NCBI RefSeq assembly: GCF_025370875.1
Contig: NZ_JAMXFD010000001.1
Location: 38,182 to 102,181 of the forward strand
Source of the DNA: Laspinema palackyanum D2c
GTDB taxonomy: Bacteria > Cyanobacteriota > Cyanobacteriia > Cyanobacteriales > Laspinemataceae
Reading direction: 5' to 3'
DNA: 64,000 nucleotides
Below the pieces are notes generated by a model. It searched no databases, was not told the origin of the DNA, and was given only the letters and a program-made list of their open reading frames with translations. This document shows, piece after piece, positions 50,087 to 59,556 of the stretch. The stretch's first letter is position 1. Each line of letters starts with the position of its first letter. A program made the position numbers and the translations under genes.

Positions 50087-50344
50087 ATGCTGAAAAATTG
50101 GACCCGAAGGGGCGATCGCCGACTTTGGGTCGGGTTTGAAATTATCGCCGGTTTCGATGGGATGATTGAACGGGTAAGGGTTCCAGGCGGCCATATCCCC
50201 TGGGAGGCGATCGCCAAGGCAATTCTGGGAGTTCTCTGGGTCTCCCTGCAATTTAAACTGGTATTAGACGTTTTGTCCTTTATTGTCGTTGCCAATCCAG
50301 TTAGGGGGAGCACATGGAAGTGCAGGAGCTCAAGTTTCTGCTAG
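50087..50344 (+). CDS. Possible small membrane-associated protein
   Basis: An 85-codon frame with a hydrophobic centre (AIAKAILGVLWVSLQFKLVL). It overlaps the start of the winged-helix gene by 31 bases. There is no recognisable family, and the first third is basic. It may be a real short membrane protein linked to the following operon, or a fortuitous frame. Support is weak. Confidence 0.3.
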   Translation: MLKNWTRRGDRRLWVGFEIIAGFDGMIERVRVPGGHIPWEAIAKAILGVLWVSLQFKLVLDVLSFIVVANPVRGSTWKCRSSSFC

Positions 50345-51168
50345 ATTTATTAGGGTTTCCCGATTATCGGGCAGCCATCACCCAGATTAAACCGAATCCG
50401 AAAACCAAGGCGGCAGAACGCGATGGCATCTGTCGGACACTCGCCGATCGCGAGTTAGTCGGATATGCTGAGGAGATTTTGACCTTTGCGATTTCTCCGG
50501 CAGGAAAGTCGCTGCTGCAACTCGACCCCGCCCGATTGCCGATCGCTGAGACGGAAGTAGCCATTCTAACGGCTTGTGCTGAGTCTACCATCACTCCGGC
50601 ACAAACCAACCTAGAGGCAGCAACCCGGCAATCTGTTATTCAAGGGTTAGCAGAAAAGGGATTAATTAAGGCGGAAAAAACCCAAATTACCGAGGTTTGG
50701 TTGACCCCCCGAGGACAGGAATATCTCCGGGAAGAGTACAATCCCAGTGGAACGTTACCTGTCGTTAGTTTGGATATGCTGACGAATTATTTGCGCTTCT
50801 TGCGGAAATCGTTGCGATCGCCAGAAGAGTCTGTTTCCCCCCATTCATCCCCCGCAACCATCCCTCCGTCATCATCGGAGATGATTCCACCTAAACCCTT
50901 ATCCGATGATGAGATTGTGCGTCTCATTCAGCAGTTAGATCGGGAATTAGCAACGGATAACTATTTGCCGATTTTTCATCTCCGGCAGAAGTTGCAACCG
51001 CCCTTGTCCCGAGAAGAGTTTGACCGCACACTCTATCGCTTACAACGGAACGATCGCATTGAGTTAAGTTCTTTACAAGAGGCCATTTCTTACAGTCCGG
51101 ACCAAATTGAGTTGGGGATTCCCCAAGATATCGGCGGTCCTTTGTTTTTTATTATTGTAACTCAATAA
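50314..51168 (+). CDS. Multi-winged-helix DNA-binding-type protein
   Basis: A 284-residue protein with at least two, probably three, winged-helix units. The first two share the wing pattern FAISPAGKSLL and VWLTPRGQEYL, each after an LVEKGLI-type recognition region (IQGLAEKGLIKAEK). The third (about 205-270) has RQKLQPPLSREEFDRTLYRL then RIELSSLQE. A Ser/Pro-rich linker separates them. Such proteins often read DNA or act as regulators. It is 51 bases from the first AAA+ ATPase and is likely its co-transcribed partner. No exact family is recognised. A GGGGAG lies a few bases before the ATG. Confidence 0.7.
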   Translation: MEVQELKFLLDLLGFPDYRAAITQIKPNPKTKAAERDGICRTLADRELVGYAEEILTFAISPAGKSLLQLDPARLPIAETEVAILTACAESTITPAQTNLEAATRQSVIQGLAEKGLIKAEKTQITEVWLTPRGQEYLREEYNPSGTLPVVSLDMLTNYLRFLRKSLRSPEESVSPHSSPATIPPSSSEMIPPKPLSDDEIVRLIQQLDRELATDNYLPIFHLRQKLQPPLSREEFDRTLYRLQRNDRIELSSLQEAISYSPDQIELGIPQDIGGPLFFIIVTQ

Positions 51169-51219
51169 CCCGAAAACAAACCCATTTTTCATCCTTCATT
51201 TTTCTGTTGAGGAACTCTT

Positions 51220-53310
51220 ATGGCAACACTCGAACAAATCATTCAGCGTGAACCGAATCCTTTTGATGCGGAAACCTTTTGGTCAGGTAATTTTTGGCAG
51301 GAAAAACAAAATCCGGCGTTTACCGTTGATTCTATTCACCAAGAGGCCATTTCCCAAATCGAAACCTTACTCAATCAGGTGGCCGAGGACCATCGCACTC
51401 GCACTGTTTTATTAGAAGGGGAAACCGGGTCGGGAAAATCTTATCTTTTAGGCAGAATCAAGCGGATTCTCAACCGGAAAGCCTTTTTTGTTTATATCGA
51501 ACCCTTTACCGCCAGTGATTATATTTGGCGGCATATTCTCCGGTACACCGTGGATAGTTTACTGGAAGTTCCCGAGGGAGAAGAAGATTCCCAATTGATG
51601 TTGTGGTTAAAAGGGTTATCGGAGTTTGAACATCGCAGTATCATGGATATGATTCGCGGCGATCGCCAGGTGTTTATCCGGAATCTTAGGGATAACTATC
51701 CCACGGGAATCTATAATGCTAATGAGTTTTTTGGCGTCCTCTATGACTTGACCAATCCCAAATTTTCGAGTCTCGCCTGCGAATGGTTACGCGGCGATGA
51801 TTTAGATGAAGAAAGTCTCAAAATCCTCCGCGTGCAACATTCCATCGATAGCGAAGATGCGGCCCAAAAAATCCTCGCCAACTTTGGCAGAATTTCCGCT
51901 GAAACTCTCCCGATTGTTCTCTGTTTTGACCAATTAGATAATATCGCCAGGTTGCCCGATGGATTGATTGATTTACCCAGTTTATTTGGGGTCAACTCCG
52001 TGATTCACACCCAAAAATTAAAAAACTTTCTGGTGATGATTAGCATCATTACCGATACTTGGAAACAAAATGCCTTTCGCATCCAAGCAACAGATAGGGA
52101 CCGCCTTGATGCGGTTGTTCTACTCAAACAAATTAGTCTCTATCAAGGGGAGGCACTTTGGGCGAGTCGTTTGTCCATTTTGCATCGTCAATCTGCCACC
52201 CAACCCCCTTCTAATTTGTATCCCCTCAACCGAGAAAAGTTAGAGGATAAGTTTCCTGGGGGTAAAACTCGTCCCAGAAATGTTTTGATGTTGGGACGCC
52301 AGTTATTTCAGGATCACAAGTTAGAATTAATGCGCGATCGCGTCGAGTATATTGATGTAGAATATACCCAGGTGATGGATCGGGAAACCTCCCATTCCCC
52401 TGAACCAGCGATCGATGTTTCAGAAGCGCCCAGTTTACCCCCAACTTCTGAAACTAAAGCCGATTTGCTGGCAGCTTTCAAGTTGTTATGGTTGCGGAAA
52501 TTTACGCAAACTCAGGAGAGGATTTCCCGAATCCGACAGTTTTCTTCCCCGGAATTAATAGCTATGTTAGGGGAAGCATTAGAAGCATTATCCATCCAAG
52601 AGGTGAAGCTACGCTTCCTGGATAGTCGCACTTATAGCAGTTATTCCCTCAGCTATCAATTCCCGGGAACTTCGGAAACCGTTGGGGTGGCATGGAGTGA
52701 AGATGCCAATTTGACGAAGTTTTGCAATTTTATGAAAGTCTGCCAAGAGGCGATCGCGGCGAAACAATGCCACAGATTGCACCTGATCCGCGAAGAAAGT
52801 ATCGGCAATCCTAATAATACCGGATACCGAATTTATAGCGATATTTACCGCACTTCTCGTCATCAGCATCTCAAACCAGACTTACTGTCGGTTCATTATT
52901 TAGTCACCTATCACAGTTTAGTCAATGATGCCTGTGGCGGAGATTTAATTGTCGGCAATGCTACCCCAAATTTAAGCGAATTGCAAACCCTGATTCGAGA
53001 ATCCAAAATTTTGCAATACTGTCCCCTGTTGCAACAATTAGAGTTAGTCCCCAGTCTCCCGATTGGCGAAGCAACTCGGGAATTGTGGCAACCTGTGGAG
53101 GATTTTCTGTTAAATCGGGCCATCAGTCAACAATGTATGGCCCGCCAACGGTTATCTCAAGAAGCGATTTTGCAATTTTCCCATATTAACGAATCTGAAG
53201 TTCATCATTTAATTGAACATCTTTGCGAAAATCATCCGGAAGTTGCCATCCTGAATCCTGATGCAAAACTGGAAGATCAGTTAGTCTATTTGGTCAACAC
53301 GCAGCGATAA
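51220..53310 (+). CDS. AAA+ ATPase, first of a paralogous pair
   Basis: A 696-residue cytosolic ATPase. A short N-terminal cap (NPFDAETFWSGNFWQEKQNP) precedes an AAA+ or STAND-type domain: Walker A GETGSGKS (67-74), Walker B VLCFDQLDN (233-241), and a lid region around 300-380. Residues about 410-560 (SSPELIAMLGEALEALSIQE, then SYSLSYQFPGTSETVGVAWS) form an alpha/beta domain I cannot name, and the end carries a winged-helix-like segment (LSQEAILQFSHINESEVHHL). The architecture recalls Orc/Cdc6-like or anti-phage ATPases, without a match. It is paired with the next gene (same spacing of all motifs). Confidence 0.75.
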   Translation: MATLEQIIQREPNPFDAETFWSGNFWQEKQNPAFTVDSIHQEAISQIETLLNQVAEDHRTRTVLLEGETGSGKSYLLGRIKRILNRKAFFVYIEPFTASDYIWRHILRYTVDSLLEVPEGEEDSQLMLWLKGLSEFEHRSIMDMIRGDRQVFIRNLRDNYPTGIYNANEFFGVLYDLTNPKFSSLACEWLRGDDLDEESLKILRVQHSIDSEDAAQKILANFGRISAETLPIVLCFDQLDNIARLPDGLIDLPSLFGVNSVIHTQKLKNFLVMISIITDTWKQNAFRIQATDRDRLDAVVLLKQISLYQGEALWASRLSILHRQSATQPPSNLYPLNREKLEDKFPGGKTRPRNVLMLGRQLFQDHKLELMRDRVEYIDVEYTQVMDRETSHSPEPAIDVSEAPSLPPTSETKADLLAAFKLLWLRKFTQTQERISRIRQFSSPELIAMLGEALEALSIQEVKLRFLDSRTYSSYSLSYQFPGTSETVGVAWSEDANLTKFCNFMKVCQEAIAAKQCHRLHLIREESIGNPNNTGYRIYSDIYRTSRHQHLKPDLLSVHYLVTYHSLVNDACGGDLIVGNATPNLSELQTLIRESKILQYCPLLQQLELVPSLPIGEATRELWQPVEDFLLNRAISQQCMARQRLSQEAILQFSHINESEVHHLIEHLCENHPEVAILNPDAKLEDQLVYLVNTQR

Positions 53311-53400
53311 CTCCAATTGCGATCGCCTGGAGACTGCGATCGCCTCTGGACGAAATTGCAACCCTATTACACCCTGTATTCTCTCACTGAGGAGTCCGCC

Positions 53401-55452
53401 GTGGCATCTATTGACCGCATTATTCAAGAATCCGTTAACCCCTTCGATTCCACCACCTTTAGACCGGGCAATTTTTGGCAAGAAGACCAAAACTCAGCCT
53501 TTACCGTCGATTCCATTCATCAAGAAGTCTTAACTGAAATTACCTCCGTCGTCAATCACGTCACACAAGACCATCGAACCCGGACAATTCTCCTCTCCGG
53601 AGATTCCGGATCGGGAAAAAGTTATCTCTTAGGACGGATTAAAAGTACCCTCAATTCCAAAGCATTTTTTGCCTATATCGGACCTTGGCCGGAAAGCGAA
53701 TTTATTTGGCGGCATACCCTTCGTAATACCGTCGATAGTTTAATGTATGTTCCCCAGGGTCAAACCGAATCCCAATTATTACTTTGGTTAAAAGAATTAG
53801 CCGCCTTTCAAGATAAAAGCCTGATGAAACGGGTATTCGGGGAACGGCAACTGTTTATTCATAAATTAAAAGGAACCTATCCCGCTGGAATCTATAACGC
53901 CAATGAGTTTTTTGGCGTTCTCTATGACTTAACCAATCCCAAATTATATCCCCTCGCTTGTGAATGGCTAAAAGGGGATGATTTGGACGAAGCCAGTTTA
54001 AAACTATTGCGGGTCAAACGGTCCATTGATTCCGAAAATGCTGCCCAGCAAATCTTATCTAATTTTGGTAAAATTGCCTCAGCAACTCAGCCGATAGTTT
54101 TATGCTTTGATAACTTAGATAATATTGACCGAGGAATCGATGGATTAATTAATTTACAGGCATTATTTAACGTTAATTCGATTATTCATAACCAAAAACT
54201 CAAAAATTTTGTTATTATTATTAGTATCATCACCAACACATGGCAGCAAAACTATAAACGGATACAACCGGCGGATTTAGCCCGAATTGATACAAAAATC
54301 CGCCTGAGTGCGATCGACCTCAATCAAGCTGCCGGATTGTTGGCGATGCGATTGTATCCCTTACACCAACTCTCCCAAACTCCACCCCCATCCCCCATCT
54401 ATCCCATAACCGAACAAGATTTAGAAGCGAAATTTCCCGGAGGGAAAACCTTGCCTCGGTTTACACTCCTCCTGGGAAGACAACTGTTTCAAGAGGCGAA
54501 GCAGCAGGAGGGAACAAGAACCGAAACTGTCATCTCACCTTCCCCCAACGAAGTAACTGCCGCCTTTCACCTGGTTTGGGTGAAAGAATTTAATAAAACG
54601 CAGGATAAAATCACCCGCCTGCGCCAATTTTCCGCCCCGGAACTGATGCAAATGGTCCGAGAAGCCCTAGAAGCATTAAATGTGAGTGGCATTCAACAAA
54701 AACTCTTACCCAGTCCCACCTACGCCAGTTATTCCCTCAGCTATCACCTCCCGGCGCAACTGGGAAGAATTGGGATTGTCTGGACAGAAGACCCCAATCT
54801 AGTCAGCTTTTATCATATCATGAAAGCCTGTGAAAAAGCCCTGACCATGCAACGCTGCAAAACCCTCTATTTAATTCGCGCTGAACGCTTAGGAACGCGC
54901 AAAAACCTGGGAAATAAACTCTACTCAGAAATTTTTACCGGACATCCCCATCGCCACATTTTACCGGACATGGTATCAATCCATTATTTAGTAACGTATC
55001 ACAGTTTAGTCAATGCCGCTTGTGCCGGTGAATTAGTCGTGGGAAGTCTCACCCCGAATTTAAAAGAATTACAAGAAATGATTCGCCATGCCCAAATTTT
55101 AGAGGACTGTCCAGTATTACAAACCTTGGGCGTGTTTACCGGATATACCCGCATCATCGGAGTCAGCGATAATAAACCGAAACAACTCGGACCCGCAGGC
55201 GATCGCAGCAAAGCCTTAAAGCAGGCAAAAGAGTATTTACTCGCCTTAGTCCGCACCCAACAAATCATGGGCCGAACCGTGTTGATTCAGAATACCTTAG
55301 ACCAATTTACCGATGTACAAGAGTATCAAGTTAAAGAGTTACTCTTTCAGCTTTGCACCGAAAACAAGCTATTTATTTTAGATGAAACTGTCCCAGAATC
55401 CGCCCAGTTAGTTTGTGTGTTAGAAGCCTTTGGCAAGAAGGCTAAAAACTAG
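53401..55452 (+). CDS. AAA+ ATPase, second of a paralogous pair
   Basis: A 683-residue paralogue of the previous gene. The GTG start (MASIDRIIQESVNPF) aligns with the sister's MATLEQIIQREPNPF and has a GAGGAG six bases upstream; a longer frame from 53317 is less likely. Walker A GDSGSGKS falls at the same residues (67-74), Walker B is VLCFDNLDN, and the shared segments NANEFFGVLYDLTNPK and LACEWLKGDDLDE are nearly identical. The C-terminal part contains the same unnamed alpha/beta domain and terminal winged helix. The N-terminal halves are far better conserved than the linkers. Two related but distinct ATPases suggest a hetero-oligomer. Confidence 0.75.
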   Translation: MASIDRIIQESVNPFDSTTFRPGNFWQEDQNSAFTVDSIHQEVLTEITSVVNHVTQDHRTRTILLSGDSGSGKSYLLGRIKSTLNSKAFFAYIGPWPESEFIWRHTLRNTVDSLMYVPQGQTESQLLLWLKELAAFQDKSLMKRVFGERQLFIHKLKGTYPAGIYNANEFFGVLYDLTNPKLYPLACEWLKGDDLDEASLKLLRVKRSIDSENAAQQILSNFGKIASATQPIVLCFDNLDNIDRGIDGLINLQALFNVNSIIHNQKLKNFVIIISIITNTWQQNYKRIQPADLARIDTKIRLSAIDLNQAAGLLAMRLYPLHQLSQTPPPSPIYPITEQDLEAKFPGGKTLPRFTLLLGRQLFQEAKQQEGTRTETVISPSPNEVTAAFHLVWVKEFNKTQDKITRLRQFSAPELMQMVREALEALNVSGIQQKLLPSPTYASYSLSYHLPAQLGRIGIVWTEDPNLVSFYHIMKACEKALTMQRCKTLYLIRAERLGTRKNLGNKLYSEIFTGHPHRHILPDMVSIHYLVTYHSLVNAACAGELVVGSLTPNLKELQEMIRHAQILEDCPVLQTLGVFTGYTRIIGVSDNKPKQLGPAGDRSKALKQAKEYLLALVRTQQIMGRTVLIQNTLDQFTDVQEYQVKELLFQLCTENKLFILDETVPESAQLVCVLEAFGKKAKN

Positions 55453-55509: not shown

Positions 55510-56304
55510 TTACCTTTGCCAACCATCAATCAGTTTAGCAATTGTTTTACCACCTAAGCCCTTAATTCGGGTAACCAAATTTTCAAAATTGATAAAGGGT
55601 TCAAAGGGTTTCTTCTTTCGCTCCTTGACTATATTCTCAATGATAGTTTTACTGACCCCAGTCTTTCCTAACAGTGAACGCAGTTGGGCTTCAGGCAACT
55701 CTAAGTTATTCAGAGATTCTAATAAGGGGGCAGGTTTGGGATTTTGATTTTCAATATCTTTTAACCGTTCCTCTAACTTTTGACTTAATGCCTCTTCCAT
55801 TCTCTGGAGATTCTGAGAATATTCAGCCTTTAATTCATTGAGTCGGGTTTCCAGCCGAACTTCAATATTAATGAATCTGGCTTCTACATCTGATTGAATT
55901 GGTGTCTGAATGGGTAAATCTTTAACACCTTGAGGATTAGGTTCAATGGGTGCTTGAGTGGGTGAATCTTTAACCCCTTGATTGCTCCTTGGCTGTGCGA
56001 AACTCTTTAATAAATCCGTTTGCTTGAGGATAATCTCTTCATTTTTTGGTGCAAAAACAAAGGCATAAACCATTTCCCCTTTACGAGGATTTTTTTCTCT
56101 AGCTCTAACCGCAGCATAGTATTCTAAATGCCCATCAACTACGGTATAGCTTTCGACTCCCATCCTTTTTAAAACTAAAGGTCTTAGAAGTCCATCACAT
56201 TCTAACATTATATCCGAAAGGCTATCTAATGCTGTTTCCGGGAAAGTTGATCGAGACACCGGCGAATTGATACTTTTAACATCTACCAGGGAAAAAGAAA
56301 TCAT
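55510..56304 (-). CDS. ParB-like protein with helix-hairpin-helix end
   Basis: 264 residues. Residues 1-95 resemble a ParB/sulfiredoxin-type N-terminal domain (DSLSDIMLECDGLLRPLVLK, then YTVVDGHLEYYAAVRAREK). The middle is a coiled-coil region (RLNELKAEYSQNLQRMEEAL). The last 75 residues (LRSLLGKTGVSKTIIENIVK, then FINFENLVTRIKGLGGKTIA) form two helix-hairpin-helix units that usually bind DNA non-specifically. A canonical ParB HTH is absent. It overlaps the ParA gene by an ATGA, showing translational coupling. No HIP1 site is present. Likely the DNA-binding partner of the ParA fusion. Confidence 0.8.
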   Translation of the reverse strand: MISFSLVDVKSINSPVSRSTFPETALDSLSDIMLECDGLLRPLVLKRMGVESYTVVDGHLEYYAAVRAREKNPRKGEMVYAFVFAPKNEEIILKQTDLLKSFAQPRSNQGVKDSPTQAPIEPNPQGVKDLPIQTPIQSDVEARFINIEVRLETRLNELKAEYSQNLQRMEEALSQKLEERLKDIENQNPKPAPLLESLNNLELPEAQLRSLLGKTGVSKTIIENIVKERKKKPFEPFINFENLVTRIKGLGGKTIAKLIDGWQR

Positions 56305-57770
56305 TTTTTCATTCCTATTTTAGCTACAACTTCTAAGGCTAATGCTTCAAATTCACCCGATGATAAAGAATCCGGTGCATATTCTAATATGGATTTAGGT
56401 TCAGGTATGTCTTGGTCTCCGATTGGAACCGTATGATTAGTACATTGAGAAAGAATTGTTCGTTCATAAATAATTGTTTCCATTAGATTGAGGTGATACG
56501 TTGCAGAAATAACACTTTTTTGTTTAGGAAAAGTATATTGCAAAAATTTGGGGTTGGGTGAAATTTTAGAAGGTAAGACTCCCAAAATCTTAAGCGGTTC
56601 TTTTCCAATCATGTCTCGAAACTCATTCACTTGACTGATAAACTGGATGACACTGGGTAACCCTTGGTTAGCAAAAGGTTTCAAATCAGATGGAATAATC
56701 AGATGGTCCGCAGCAATCAACGCGACTTCTGCATATAAGTCCCGGGAGGGAGGAGTATCTATAATTACGATATCATATTCTTTTTCAACTTGGTTTAACT
56801 TAGTGACTAGCCGACCTTTAGTTGCTCCGATTTGATTCAATTTATATTGCCCTTCAATGAGGTTAATATGAGAAGGAATTACATCAATTTCGGGGGTGTT
56901 AAAATTATCAGATTGTCGAGTAACATTTGATACAGAATAAAAGTCTCCTGTTTCTAAAATATGATAAACATTTTTATCTTTTAAATTGTCATCTTCTTCA
57001 AATAAAAACTTCATTAATCCTGTGGCAAAAGTTGAATTAGATTGAGCATCTATATCAATTAACAGGACCTTTTTTCCCTTTTTTCGGAGGGCGGCAGCTA
57101 AGTTGACTGCAACCGTGGTTTTTCCGACGCCGCCTTTGTTATGATAAACAGCAATTACTTTCACCGTAGAATTCCTCTTAGTATTAGAAGTGGGTTCAAC
57201 AACGGGTTCGGGGTCACTGGGAGTGGGCGGAAATAAATCCTCTGGAAACGGGATTTCTTCCGATGCTTGTTCAGGAATTGACTGGTCCCTAATAGGAGGG
57301 AGATTAGAGTCTGTCGCCGGTGAATCCAAGGTTTGTTTATGTTGACTGCTCTCTTTCCCAATCAAGGCATTAATTTCTTCAATTTTTGCCTCGACTTCTT
57401 GTCCCAAACACTGAAAGACTAGATGGATGTCCTCCCCCACTCGTTCATAAATCCGCATTTCCTTACCATTCGTGAGGACCCCATATTTAACCTGTAGTTT
57501 TGTTAAATAGCGTTTAAACTTTCTCAGGTGTCGGTCTAGGTTTTGTTTGGGACTTTTGGCCTCCATCACGACACTCAGGGGAGAATTGGCATCAAGGACG
57601 AAGGGAACGGCTTGGATGGCGAAGGCTAAGAAATCTAACCGGATGCTACTAAAAGCAACTTCTTGATGCCAACTGTCCGGGGTGTACCCTAATGCTGGCA
57701 ACAAGTAACTGACGATTAGTTTACTCTCAACTTCGCTCTCGTTTCGGCAAAGGTCTGGATGGAAACTCAA
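56301..57770 (-). CDS. ParA-type ATPase fused to HsdR-N-like PD-(D/E)XK domain
   Basis: 489 residues. Residues 1-140 look like the N-terminal nuclease domain of type I restriction R subunits: an early Glu (ESEVES), Asp46 in SIRLDFLAF and Glu70-Ala-Lys72 in VVMEAKSPKQ, a complete D...ExK site. After an acidic Pro-rich linker a ParA/MinD ATPase begins, with the deviant Walker A NKGGVGKTT (about 211-219), LLIDIDAQSNS, and DIVIIDTPPSRD. ParA proteins segregate DNA by patterning over the nucleoid; the nuclease-like fusion is unusual. The start is TTG. It overlaps its ParB-like partner by four bases and has no HIP1 site. Confidence 0.85.
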   Translation of the reverse strand: MSFHPDLCRNESEVESKLIVSYLLPALGYTPDSWHQEVAFSSIRLDFLAFAIQAVPFVLDANSPLSVVMEAKSPKQNLDRHLRKFKRYLTKLQVKYGVLTNGKEMRIYERVGEDIHLVFQCLGQEVEAKIEEINALIGKESSQHKQTLDSPATDSNLPPIRDQSIPEQASEEIPFPEDLFPPTPSDPEPVVEPTSNTKRNSTVKVIAVYHNKGGVGKTTVAVNLAAALRKKGKKVLLIDIDAQSNSTFATGLMKFLFEEDDNLKDKNVYHILETGDFYSVSNVTRQSDNFNTPEIDVIPSHINLIEGQYKLNQIGATKGRLVTKLNQVEKEYDIVIIDTPPSRDLYAEVALIAADHLIIPSDLKPFANQGLPSVIQFISQVNEFRDMIGKEPLKILGVLPSKISPNPKFLQYTFPKQKSVISATYHLNLMETIIYERTILSQCTNHTVPIGDQDIPEPKSILEYAPDSLSSGEFEALALEVVAKIGMKK

Positions 57771-57946
57771 GGTTTTTACCCGGATTATCCGGTGCCTTAC
57801 GGAATCGTTTTAGATCTTACCTGATCTGAGGTAAAACCCGAACAATATCTTAATATTTTTTAACAAAAAAAGCCGATCGCCACTGAATCGAGAGGGTGCG
57901 TTACTTTAGATTGTCGCGCACCCGATGATCAGGGATGTAACTGTTT

Positions 57947-58387
57947 TCAATTTGCCGATCGCTCTTTAGAACCCGAAAAACTCTCTTTCAACTTGGCGAT
58001 CGCACCTTGGATAAAATTCGGCTGTTTTTCTGGAGGACGCACTGCTAACTCGATAGGATCTTCGGCATATTCTTTCCCTTTTAAGCGATACCCATATTCC
58101 AGATTCTGTTGATTTTTTCGCAGAATAGGAAACAAGCGAAATCCGCCTTCTCGCAACTCTTCCTCTGTATCAAAAATCGCTTGATTAATCTTACTGGTTC
58201 GATTCACCATCAATGAACCCACGGGAAACCAGTTCTTTTTGCCTTGTATCCGCATAAAAATATGAAATTCGGGCATATCCCCTTCTTTCATTTTCTCATA
58301 CTTCTGTGCTGCCTCTTCCCGCTTTGCTGTGCCTTTGCCGCTTTTCTTGCGCGGTTGCACTTTCCCAAATCCCTGTTGTGTCGTCAC
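57947..58387 (-). CDS. HHL1-like protein
   Basis: A 146-residue protein similar to plant HYPERSENSITIVE TO HIGH LIGHT 1 and its cyanobacterial homologues. Recognised parts are the basic N-terminus (VQPRKKSGKGTAKREEAAQK), the domain core HIFMRIQGKKNWFPVGSLMV and FRLFPILRKNQQNLEYGYRL, and the following YAEDPIELAV. HHL1 binds photosystem II assembly/repair factors in chloroplasts; a similar role at thylakoids is inferred here. A GTG start is followed by MTTQQGFGK. No membrane helix is seen. HIP1 sites return here. Confidence 0.8.
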   Translation of the reverse strand: MTTQQGFGKVQPRKKSGKGTAKREEAAQKYEKMKEGDMPEFHIFMRIQGKKNWFPVGSLMVNRTSKINQAIFDTEEELREGGFRLFPILRKNQQNLEYGYRLKGKEYAEDPIELAVRPPEKQPNFIQGAIAKLKESFSGSKERSAN

Positions 58388-58620: not shown

Positions 58621-59556
58621 CTACAATTGCTCATCCTCGGGTGGAATGATTTTTAACTGCAAGGTTTCGGAAGTTTCAACGGACATGGGGAGGCGATCGC
58701 TGACGGCATCTAACTGAGTCCGCATTTCCTTCGTCAGAGTGAGAACACAATCAAAATCAATCTGTTCCTCTTGCACGAGTTTCGCCAATTCTGAAAACGG
58801 TGTTTTATACGTCGATCGCTCATAACTGGAGAATTTAACTCGATGCATTTGCTTGATCCGTTGAGCTTGCATTGCCGATTTGAGGCGCTTTTCCACATAA
58901 CTCAATTCCGACTCCAGTAACGCCGCTTCCTGCTTTAATCTTGTATATTCTGCCGCTAGAACCTGCACGTTATCCGTTGCTGGATCTCGCTGAGTCATGC
59001 CTTCAATTTCCATCAGACGGCGATGCACATAAGCTAAATAAATCGGGTCGAGGGTGGCATATCGAACTTGGCTCTCACTTAGCGATCGCCTTCCCCAGTC
59101 ACTTTGTTGCTCTGAACTATCTGGACGAGGTAACCCGCACAATTCACAAGCTAAAGTTTTGAGTTGAAAATTGGAGGTTTCTAACATAAACAACGGCAAA
59201 CTTTTCGCCAAAAGTAACGTACAAGTTACATTTCTGGCTTGGGCTTTTCCTAAAAACCTCAAATCATAACTGGCATTGTGAAACACTTTTTCAATGGCAG
59301 GGTTAGCCATGATAGTGTTGATAAACTCGGCAGTTAATTGGGGGCGATTAAGAACATCTAAGAGATAAACCCGGTTCATTAACAGTTCTAGGGAGTTGGG
59401 GAATTCTCCTGGGAAGTCTGGCAAAATCTGAATCAGAGAAAGTCGGGGGTTTTTGGTTCGATAATCCGCCACTTCTGTATCCACCCAAAGGCGTTCAACT
59501 TGGGTACAGGTGGCGATCGCATCTTTAATATCCGTGGGATCCGTTAAATAGGGCAT
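58621..59556 (-). CDS. rnd: Ribonuclease D-like 3'-5' exonuclease
   Basis: A 311-residue DEDDy exonuclease for maturation or turnover of small RNAs. The acidic site is Asp26-x-Glu28 in LWVDTEVADY, the second Asp in VFHNASYDLRFLGK, and the YxxxD motif in RYATLDPIYLAYVH. The C-terminal 110 residues are helical and coiled-coil (EAALLESELSYVEKRLKSAM), not a clear HRDC domain as in E. coli RNase D. It lies alone, convergent to nothing, with its end at the repeat gap. Confidence 0.9.
   Translation of the reverse strand: MPYLTDPTDIKDAIATCTQVERLWVDTEVADYRTKNPRLSLIQILPDFPGEFPNSLELLMNRVYLLDVLNRPQLTAEFINTIMANPAIEKVFHNASYDLRFLGKAQARNVTCTLLLAKSLPLFMLETSNFQLKTLACELCGLPRPDSSEQQSDWGRRSLSESQVRYATLDPIYLAYVHRRLMEIEGMTQRDPATDNVQVLAAEYTRLKQEAALLESELSYVEKRLKSAMQAQRIKQMHRVKFSSYERSTYKTPFSELAKLVQEEQIDFDCVLTLTKEMRTQLDAVSDRLPMSVETSETLQLKIIPPEDEQL

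What the first reader, a model, noticed from the sequence alone, without database searches (positions are those of the whole stretch)
50314..55452. Winged-helix protein plus twin AAA+ ATPases: candidate undescribed system
One strand carries a multi-winged-helix protein and two paralogous AAA+ proteins that keep all motifs at identical residues but differ elsewhere. Gaps of 51 and 90 bases suggest one transcript. Both ATPases end in an alpha/beta domain and a winged helix I do not recognise. Duplicated ATPases with a DNA-binding-type partner fit a defence, replication-control or DNA-remodelling machine. The sequence facts are seen; the system-level idea is inference.
Basis: partly seen in the sequence, partly recalled or inferred. 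Interest (0 to 1): 0.72.

Follow-up and report, generated by a model that had tools for sequence, protein, structure and literature searches.

The report
Twin ORC-like ATPases with winged-helix partner
A cyanobacterium carries a conserved three-gene unit of one DNA-binding protein and two sister ATPases built like the machine that marks replication origins; its relatives usually sit beside a DNA pump fused to nucleases, in a kind of predicted anti-invader system already in print, but this twin form persists without that pump.

Summary
The sequence facts hold: WH (50314-51168), ATPase A (51220-53310), ATPase B (53401-55452), one strand, gaps 51 and 90. Predicted folds: ORC/Cdc6-like AAA+ with an inserted alpha/beta domain and C-terminal winged helix; WH has three winged helices. 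WH lies directly upstream of an ATPase in 43 of 46 sampled cyanobacterial genomes with the ATPase. An intact FtsK/SpoIIIE-type translocase, often fused to a PD-(D/E)XK nuclease and a 3'-5' exonuclease, is present in 36 of 46, usually as the next gene. That matches the Orc/CDC6 'HerA/FtsK capture' neighbourhoods already described in silico (PMC10853773), so 'undescribed' is only partly right. What differs here: a tandem ATPase pair in two clades, fixed for Gln (A) or Asn (B) after the Walker B Asp, under strong purifying selection although 10 of about 25 twin genomes, this one included, lack an intact translocase. In sister strains a second WH-ATPase-FtsK module is present or absent at one intergenic site. 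Best reading: the DNA-recognition and loading half of an anti-invader machine, kept as an FtsK-independent heteromeric variant. Function is inferred, not shown.

The parts
50314..51168 (+). WH: 284-aa protein with three winged-helix-like units; predicted DNA-recognition subunit
   Evidence: ORF; AF2 mean pLDDT 83.3; MarR-type wHTH matches up to Z 11.3 over 72 residues; directly upstream of the ATPase in 43 of 46 genomes (positions)
51220..53310 (+). ATPase A: ORC/Cdc6-like AAA+ (about aa 1-386), inserted alpha/beta domain (about aa 410-610), C-terminal winged helix (aa 617-691); Walker A GETGSGKS, Walker B FDQLDN
   Evidence: ORF; AAA_16 34.3 bits; AF2 mean pLDDT 85.5; ORC/Cdc6 chains head the structural matches
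53401..55452 (+). ATPase B: paralogue of A; Walker A GDSGSGKS, Walker B FDNLDN; GTG start inferred from alignment with A
   Evidence: ORF from TTG 53317; 54% identity to A; separate clade
57868..57971 (.). Site where sister strains carry a second WH-ATPase-FtsK module (about 5.9 kb in L051); only 104 bp here, so the module is absent
   Evidence: L051 homology to the window ends at 57867 and resumes at 57972 beyond the FtsK gene; L055 and L056 align straight through
55510..56304 (-). ParB-like protein (sub-threshold ParB_N and helix-hairpin-helix matches), convergent neighbour; possible partner, not shown
56301..57770 (-). ParA-type ATPase with N-terminal HSDR_N_2 (PD-(D/E)XK-like) domain keeping D46, E70 and K72; neighbour and possible alternative nuclease, not shown

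Best explanation
WH-A-B is the DNA-recognition and loading half of an Orc/CDC6-type 'HerA/FtsK capture' anti-invader machine, kept in these cyanobacteria as a stable, FtsK-independent heteromeric variant. WH (three winged helices) binds DNA and helps load A and B, which assemble ORC-like around or along duplex DNA; ATP binding acts as a switch, hydrolysis being probably slow because the residue after the Walker B Asp is Gln (A) or Asn (B). In relatives, and in strains with the second module, an FtsK translocase fused to nucleases joins the loader and pumps DNA to the cutting site. In this genome that motor is gone, so the complex acts alone (marking or blocking foreign DNA) or with a nuclease in trans. 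Shown: gene linkage, domain folds by prediction, separate A and B clades, purifying selection, presence or absence of the FtsK module at one site. Inferred: complex formation, DNA loading, slow hydrolysis, anti-invader role, partner in trans.
For: WH directly upstream of the ATPase in 43 of 46 genomes with a bona fide ATPase. FtsK partner intact in 36 of those 46, adjacent in 33. The partner in L081 carries FtsK_SpoIIIE (140.8 bits), FtsK_alpha, PDDEXK_1 and DNA_pol_A_exo1; its best PADLOC hit is SspH, 221.6 bits. ATPase fold: ORC/Cdc6 chains at Z 15.8 (7jgr_G, 316 aligned, rmsd 14.3, reaching the C-terminal winged helix) and 14.9 (1w5t_A, 249 aligned, rmsd 3.9). The 22 twin A copies are one clade (support 1.0) with Gln in 22 of 22; the 20 twin B copies have Asn in 20 of 20 and their clade (0.992) also holds two single copies, L088 and L089. 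dN/dS in the Laspinema group, FtsK-less strains included: A 0.05-0.095, B 0.04-0.07, WH 0.13-0.18. The FtsK module is present or absent at one site and looks exchanged between strains in one pair: dS 0.10 for FtsK against 0.35 for A in L051-L052. Published class with the same parts.
Against: No experiment. No nuclease or translocase in the operon here; this genome keeps only a C-terminal FtsK relic on another contig. The twin unit is stable and under strong constraint, and few neighbours look like defence genes, which fits a cellular role as well. In L051-L054 FtsK dS (0.32) is close to that of A (0.36), so descent there looks vertical. The iREase identity of residues 410-610 is not established. 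TnsC chains lie within 1-2 Z of the ORC chains, and STAND-type chains not far below, so the exact AAA+ subclade rests on the whole architecture.
Confidence: 0.55

Rival explanations
1. A cellular chromosome-maintenance complex: an ORC-like loader with a winged-helix partner that works in replication control or segregation; the FtsK fusion in relatives is a segregation or repair motor.
For: Very low dN/dS; same surroundings in the Laspinema group and a shared spot beside a glycosyltransferase and ParB/ParA genes in several genomes of unnamed family f6; Pfam families shown for neighbours are mainly metabolic, TPR and envelope ones (25 of 92 families shown); FtsK_alpha is fused, which PMC10853773 gives as a mark of cellular FtsK and certain DndH.
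Against: Patchy: 49 of 386 genomes; repeated loss or truncation of FtsK, exonuclease, WH or ATPase; nuclease fusions; best PADLOC hit of the motor is SspH; one copy on a conjugative plasmid.
Confidence: 0.25
2. The twin unit now works with the neighbouring ParB and ParA-nuclease pair, which replaced FtsK-nuclease as the effector.
For: Among 45 ATPase-bearing sampled genomes all 6 with an intact ParA-nuclease of the window's type lack intact FtsK, against 3 of the other 39 (positions; Fisher p 1.0e-5 with the interrupted FtsK of G305 counted as intact, 2.6e-5 if not). In several genomes holding both loci one is broken: FtsK reduced to a tail in G024 and G042 and to the exonuclease in G199 and G251, ParA split in G300, putative catalytic Asp lost in L051 and L054. 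D46, E70 and K72 are kept in the others aligned.
Against: Both intact in the L052 genome and, with another ParA subfamily, in L093; the L080 genome has FtsK and a ParA in two pieces at contig ends. Many genomes have ParA-nuclease without any ATPase. Shared position and ancestry could make the exclusion; the test is not corrected for either. The ATPase of G072 lacks a Walker A match, and those of G072, G231 and G306 give higher dN/dS (0.31-0.46) at saturating distances.
Confidence: 0.12
3. A leftover: the core of a former FtsK system, slowly decaying after loss of the motor.
For: FtsK relic in this genome, FtsK pseudogene with stops in the L062 genome, fragments in G024 and G042, a decayed locus in G385.
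Against: A and B are intact at dN/dS 0.04-0.095 in strains without FtsK; L055, L056, L057, L059, L062 and L066 keep both full ORFs without an intact FtsK.
Confidence: 0.08

Closest known systems
Orc/CDC6-coupled 'HerA/FtsK capture' neighbourhoods (Rakesh, Aravind and Krishnan 2024, PMC10853773)
   Same: Orc/CDC6 AAA+ with a domain inserted before a C-terminal wHTH; partner gene with 2-4 wHTH; in our relatives FtsK with FtsK-alpha, PD-(D/E)XK nuclease and 3'-5' exonuclease fused
   Different: Here two tandem ATPases with intact Walker A and no FtsK or REase in the operon; Walker B reads D-Q or D-N. The paper's two-Orc variant has a disrupted second Walker B and a KAP partner. The word cyanobacteri- does not occur in its main text; its figures and supplement were not seen.
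SspBCD / SspFGH phosphorothioate defence
   Same: By PMC10853773, SspC is an Orc/CDC6 AAA+ and SspB has a triple-wHTH module; the FtsK motor of our relatives scores best to SspH
   Different: No sulfur-transfer gene seen among the neighbours scanned
DndFGH
   Same: Triple wHTH subunit (DndG) and an FtsK/HerA motor (DndH) in the published description
   Different: By that description DndG is 450-500 aa, DndF has a P-loop kinase domain and DndH is about 1700 aa with a constant multidomain core; WH here is about 280 aa and the relatives' FtsK gene mostly 650-880 aa, longer in some (up to 1121 aa in G131)
Archaeal Orc1/Cdc6 and eukaryotic ORC
   Same: AAA+ and winged-helix fold
   Different: Extra inserted domain; no evidence of a replication role

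Membership tests
Orc/CDC6 HerA/FtsK capture system | Orc/CDC6-clade AAA+ ATPase | tested here: met
   ORC/Cdc6 chains head the structural matches, Z up to 15.8; TnsC chains at about 14 are close behind; Foldseek best E 5e-5 to ORC
Orc/CDC6 HerA/FtsK capture system | C-terminal wHTH after the AAA+ module | tested here: met
   Model residues 617-691; several ORC alignments extend to residues 693-696
Orc/CDC6 HerA/FtsK capture system | Inactive REase inserted between AAA+ and wHTH | tested here: inconclusive
   An alpha/beta domain is inserted there with helix-strands-helix-strand order and no conserved D...ExK, but no Pfam or PDB sequence match beyond chance level and no fold search of the domain alone
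Orc/CDC6 HerA/FtsK capture system | Partner with 2-4 wHTH domains (subset of operons) | tested here: met
   Three wHTH-like units, the third by secondary structure only; linkage in 43 of 46. Specific kinship to DndG or SspB not tested
Orc/CDC6 HerA/FtsK capture system | HerA/FtsK translocase | tested here: not met
   No relative of the partner in the operon or the genome apart from a relic; intact in 36 of 46 sampled genomes with the ATPase
Orc/CDC6 HerA/FtsK capture system | Active REase in the operon | tested here: not met
   None in WH, A or B by Pfam; in relatives PDDEXK_1 in 3 of 5 FtsK partners scanned. The convergent ParA-HSDR_N gene lies outside the operon
DndFGH | DndG (DptG) present | tested here: inconclusive
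   TIGR03236 matched 0 of 194 genomes, G000 included, but rang in no control genome
BREX | BrxC/BrxD-type ATPase | tested here: not met
   BrxC_BrxD 13 bits against a cut-off of 22.2 for A, not listed for B
Ssp system | SspB-SspC-SspD modification genes together | tested here: not met
   No SspD-like gene among the neighbours scanned; dndB-, dndC- and dndD-like genes lie on another contig

The most novel reading that the evidence does not exclude
WH-A-B is a stand-alone bacterial ORC-like heteromer that evolved from an FtsK capture system and now acts without a pump, either silencing or marking foreign DNA alone or driving the neighbouring ParA-nuclease/ParB pair, so that motor and loader of these machines are interchangeable modules.
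Probability: 0.2. Interest if true: 0.7.

Novelty: new variant of a known kind. Interest (0 to 1): 0.45.

Why it matters
The Orc/CDC6-FtsK capture systems are predictions; no laboratory test of one appeared in the listings of the paper searches made here. These cyanobacteria give a natural dissection: the loader half kept under strong selection with and without the motor, in closely related strains that differ by one module at one site. That makes the separate roles of loader and motor directly testable.

Tried and rejected
Sequence search of A against solved structures gave only one chance-level hit; profile searches of A, WH and the middle domain gave only weak hits. With the patterns used, no relatives in viral contigs, none in phage records, one cyanobacterial conjugative plasmid. 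Middle domain against Pfam: 20 members scanned, no family in more than one. Strict exclusion of FtsK and ParA-nuclease was considered and rejected after counterexamples. The D46G change in L051 and L054 looked like support for exclusion, but the L052 genome has FtsK and an intact Asp, and the two may share one event. An 'ATPase plus ParA/ParB' three-gene system in G072, G231 and G306 was weakened by the missing Walker A match in G072. Defence-island context: weak; I picked 70 of 211 neighbour proteins (150 of them printed) and left recurrent neighbours such as glycosyltransferase, ParA and ParB mostly out. No SspB, DndG or FokI rows were among those shown for WH, but MarR-type chains fill that list, so this excludes nothing.

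Counts adjusted: of 49 genomes, G042 and G193 (weak, 24-28% identity) and G385 (fragment of a decayed locus) were left out, giving 46. For the ParA comparison G382 was also left out, because I could not tell whether it was among the 373 genomes, giving 45. ParA genes below E 1e-60 were not counted there. In the twin count G207 and G394 look like the same genome by contig numbers and positions, so 26 handles are given as about 25 genomes. L069 and L118 are identical rows in the tree of 76 (75 distinct sequences).
Full report
1. Observation. B aligns with A from a GTG at 53401, which gives the 90-base gap; the first gap is 51 bases. A and B are 54% identical. Walker motifs lie at the same positions, but the residues differ: GETGSGK and FDQLDN in A, GDSGSGK and FDNLDN in B. 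Open frames of this length with relatives at 41-97% identity in many genomes are not chance.

2. What the proteins are. Pfam gives AAA_16 above its cut-off for A and B; WH has no family above cut-off. The model of A (mean pLDDT 85.5, pTM 0.55, 43 sequences) has an AAA+ module, a mixed alpha/beta domain at about 410-610 and a C-terminal winged helix at 617-691. Among 997 chains aligned, ORC and Cdc6 chains head the list: 7jgr_G Z 15.8 with 316 aligned at rmsd 14.3 (probably two domains placed differently), 1w5t_A Z 14.9 with 249 aligned at rmsd 3.9. TnsC chains reach about Z 14 and STAND-type chains about 13, so the subclade rests on the whole architecture, not on Z alone. WH models as three winged-helix-like units (mean pLDDT 83.3, pTM 0.52); MarR-type domains match residues within 1-145 at Z up to 11.3 over about 70 residues, and the third unit is read from secondary structure only. 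The middle domain of A has helix, strands, helix, strand order and no conserved D...ExK; S476, W492 and R524 are invariant in 76 sequences. That fits an inactive restriction-nuclease fold but was not tested by a fold search of that domain, and sequence profiles found nothing.

3. Linkage. The ATPase was found in 49 of 386 sampled genomes of the phylum and WH in 45 of 373. Leaving out two weak homologues (G042, G193) and the decayed locus of G385, 46 genomes have a bona fide ATPase; in 43 WH lies directly upstream on the same strand, at most about 260 bases away (my reading of positions). G072, G231 and G306 have no WH; G062, G170 and G215 have WH (partial in the last two) without an ATPase match. 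Another 44 named loci came from genome contigs and show the same pairing in most; loci with no WH just upstream although the contig reaches further include L077, L079, L086, L088 and L094, and in L060 and L087 the WH genes follow B. With the patterns used no relative was found in viral contigs, none in phages; one lies on a conjugative plasmid of Pseudanabaena as WH (32% identical), ATPase and FtsK in a row.

4. The missing partner. In many relatives the operon goes on to a third gene, mostly 650-880 residues, longer in some. Its domains are FtsK_SpoIIIE and FtsK_alpha in 5 of 5 scanned, PDDEXK_1 in 3 of 5 and an N-terminal DNA_pol_A_exo1 in 3 of 5; its best PADLOC hit is SspH in 3 of 3. Among the 46 ATPase genomes an intact copy is adjacent in 33, elsewhere in 3 (G051, G101, G233), interrupted in 1 (G305) and absent or broken in 9: G000, G072, G109, G118, G119, G199, G231, G306, G320 (G119 and G109 have only distant FtsK-like genes at about 31%). 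This window's genome (G000) has only a frameshifted C-terminal relic on another contig.

5. The twin. Twin loci are known from about 25 genomes here. FtsK is absent or broken in 10: G000, G118, G389-G393, G395 and the assemblies behind L053 and L067. Four of the ten are MAGs (L053, L057, L059, L067; titles), where absence is less sure. In a FastTree of 76 ATPases the 22 twin A copies form one clade (support 1.0); the 20 twin B copies form a clade (0.992) that also holds L088 and L089, single B-like copies with Asn. Seventeen positions are fixed differently in A and B, among them 238: Gln in 22 of 22 A, Asn in 20 of 20 B; in the other 34 it is Gln 21, Asn 11, His 1, Glu 1. The usual Walker B Glu (recalled from general knowledge of AAA+ proteins) is thus missing nearly family-wide, not only in the twin. 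Pairwise dN/dS in the Laspinema group: A 0.05-0.095, B 0.04-0.07, WH 0.13-0.18, including pairs in which neither genome has FtsK (window with L055 or L056).

6. A module that comes and goes. L051 and L054, close relatives of the window, carry a second WH-ATPase-FtsK module beyond ParB/ParA; the L052 genome has the FtsK gene beside the same downstream gene. In the window the two flanks are 104 bp apart (57868-57971) against about 5.9 kb in L051 (positions); L055 and L056 align straight through the site. FtsK dS is 0.10 between L051 and L052 while A's is 0.35, which suggests exchange between lineages; for L051-L054 the values are 0.32 and 0.36, compatible with descent, and for L052-L054 0.30 and 0.35.

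7. The ParB/ParA neighbour. The convergent pair at 55510-57770 includes a ParA with an HSDR_N_2 N-terminus keeping D46, E70 and K72. The same pair lies near the module or its fragments in several sampled genomes of unnamed family f6. In the 45-genome sample, intact ParA-nuclease of this type (6 genomes) and intact FtsK do not co-occur (p 1.0e-5, or 2.6e-5 with G305 counted as broken; not corrected for ancestry or shared position). Against this, the L052 and L093 genomes have both, and the L080 genome has FtsK plus a ParA in pieces at contig ends. I keep this as a lead.

8. Known or new. PMC10853773 was read in its outline and abstract, sections 19, 21, 22 and 26, and passages. Its section 22 describes Orc/CDC6 ATPases with an inactive REase before the C-terminal wHTH, coupled to HerA/FtsK, an active REase and a 2-4 wHTH protein, some with a fused 3'-5' exonuclease. 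Our relatives fit this. Its figures and supplement were not seen, so these cyanobacterial loci may be in them. PMC12839542 and PMC8092258 were seen as passages only. The tandem pair with two intact Walker A motifs and no translocase was not in the parts read. I file the window's unit as a variant, not a full member: two usual features, FtsK and active REase, were tested and not met.

9. Function. The anti-invader role rests on resemblance to that predicted class, on nuclease and motor fusions in relatives, and on gain and loss of the FtsK module. Neighbours give little: among 70 chosen proteins the PADLOC matches (58 families, Septu- and AriAB-type models among them) fell on at most 2 proteins per family. 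Stability and strong constraint keep a chromosome-maintenance role open.

Noticed in passing
window 55510-57770; L051, L054, L055, L056, L166: The ParA-nuclease gene is far more variable between close strains (68-85% identity to the window) than WH, A and B (about 91-98%); in L051 and L054 the putative catalytic Asp46 is Gly.
   Followed up: partly
L115:9931-10219 (G000 contig C10): Frameshifted relic of the C-terminal end of the FtsK partner, with no WH or ATPase remnant found in the 20 kb examined.
   Followed up: yes
L175:6745-13127 (G000 contig C10): Genes matching DndD/PbeC, DndC and DndB (phosphorothioate modification) in the same genome; no DptG match was found, but that search had no positive control.
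   Followed up: partly
L115 about 529-2702: Short repeated peptide frames suggest a direct-repeat array, perhaps CRISPR.
   Followed up: no
window 58621-59556: Stand-alone 3'-5' exonuclease gene, 47% identical to the exonuclease domain fused to FtsK in L081; many sampled genomes have such a separate gene.
   Followed up: partly
L140-L143, L146-L149; G385 C1: In several genomes of unnamed family f6 one spot near a glycosyltransferase and ParB/ParA holds the full operon, only the ATPase, only an exonuclease piece or only an FtsK tail; G385 has a decayed locus with stops in FtsK.
   Followed up: partly
L156:4925-12873 (G131): A second nuclease-like ORF precedes WH, and the FtsK partner is unusually long (1121 aa).
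   Followed up: no
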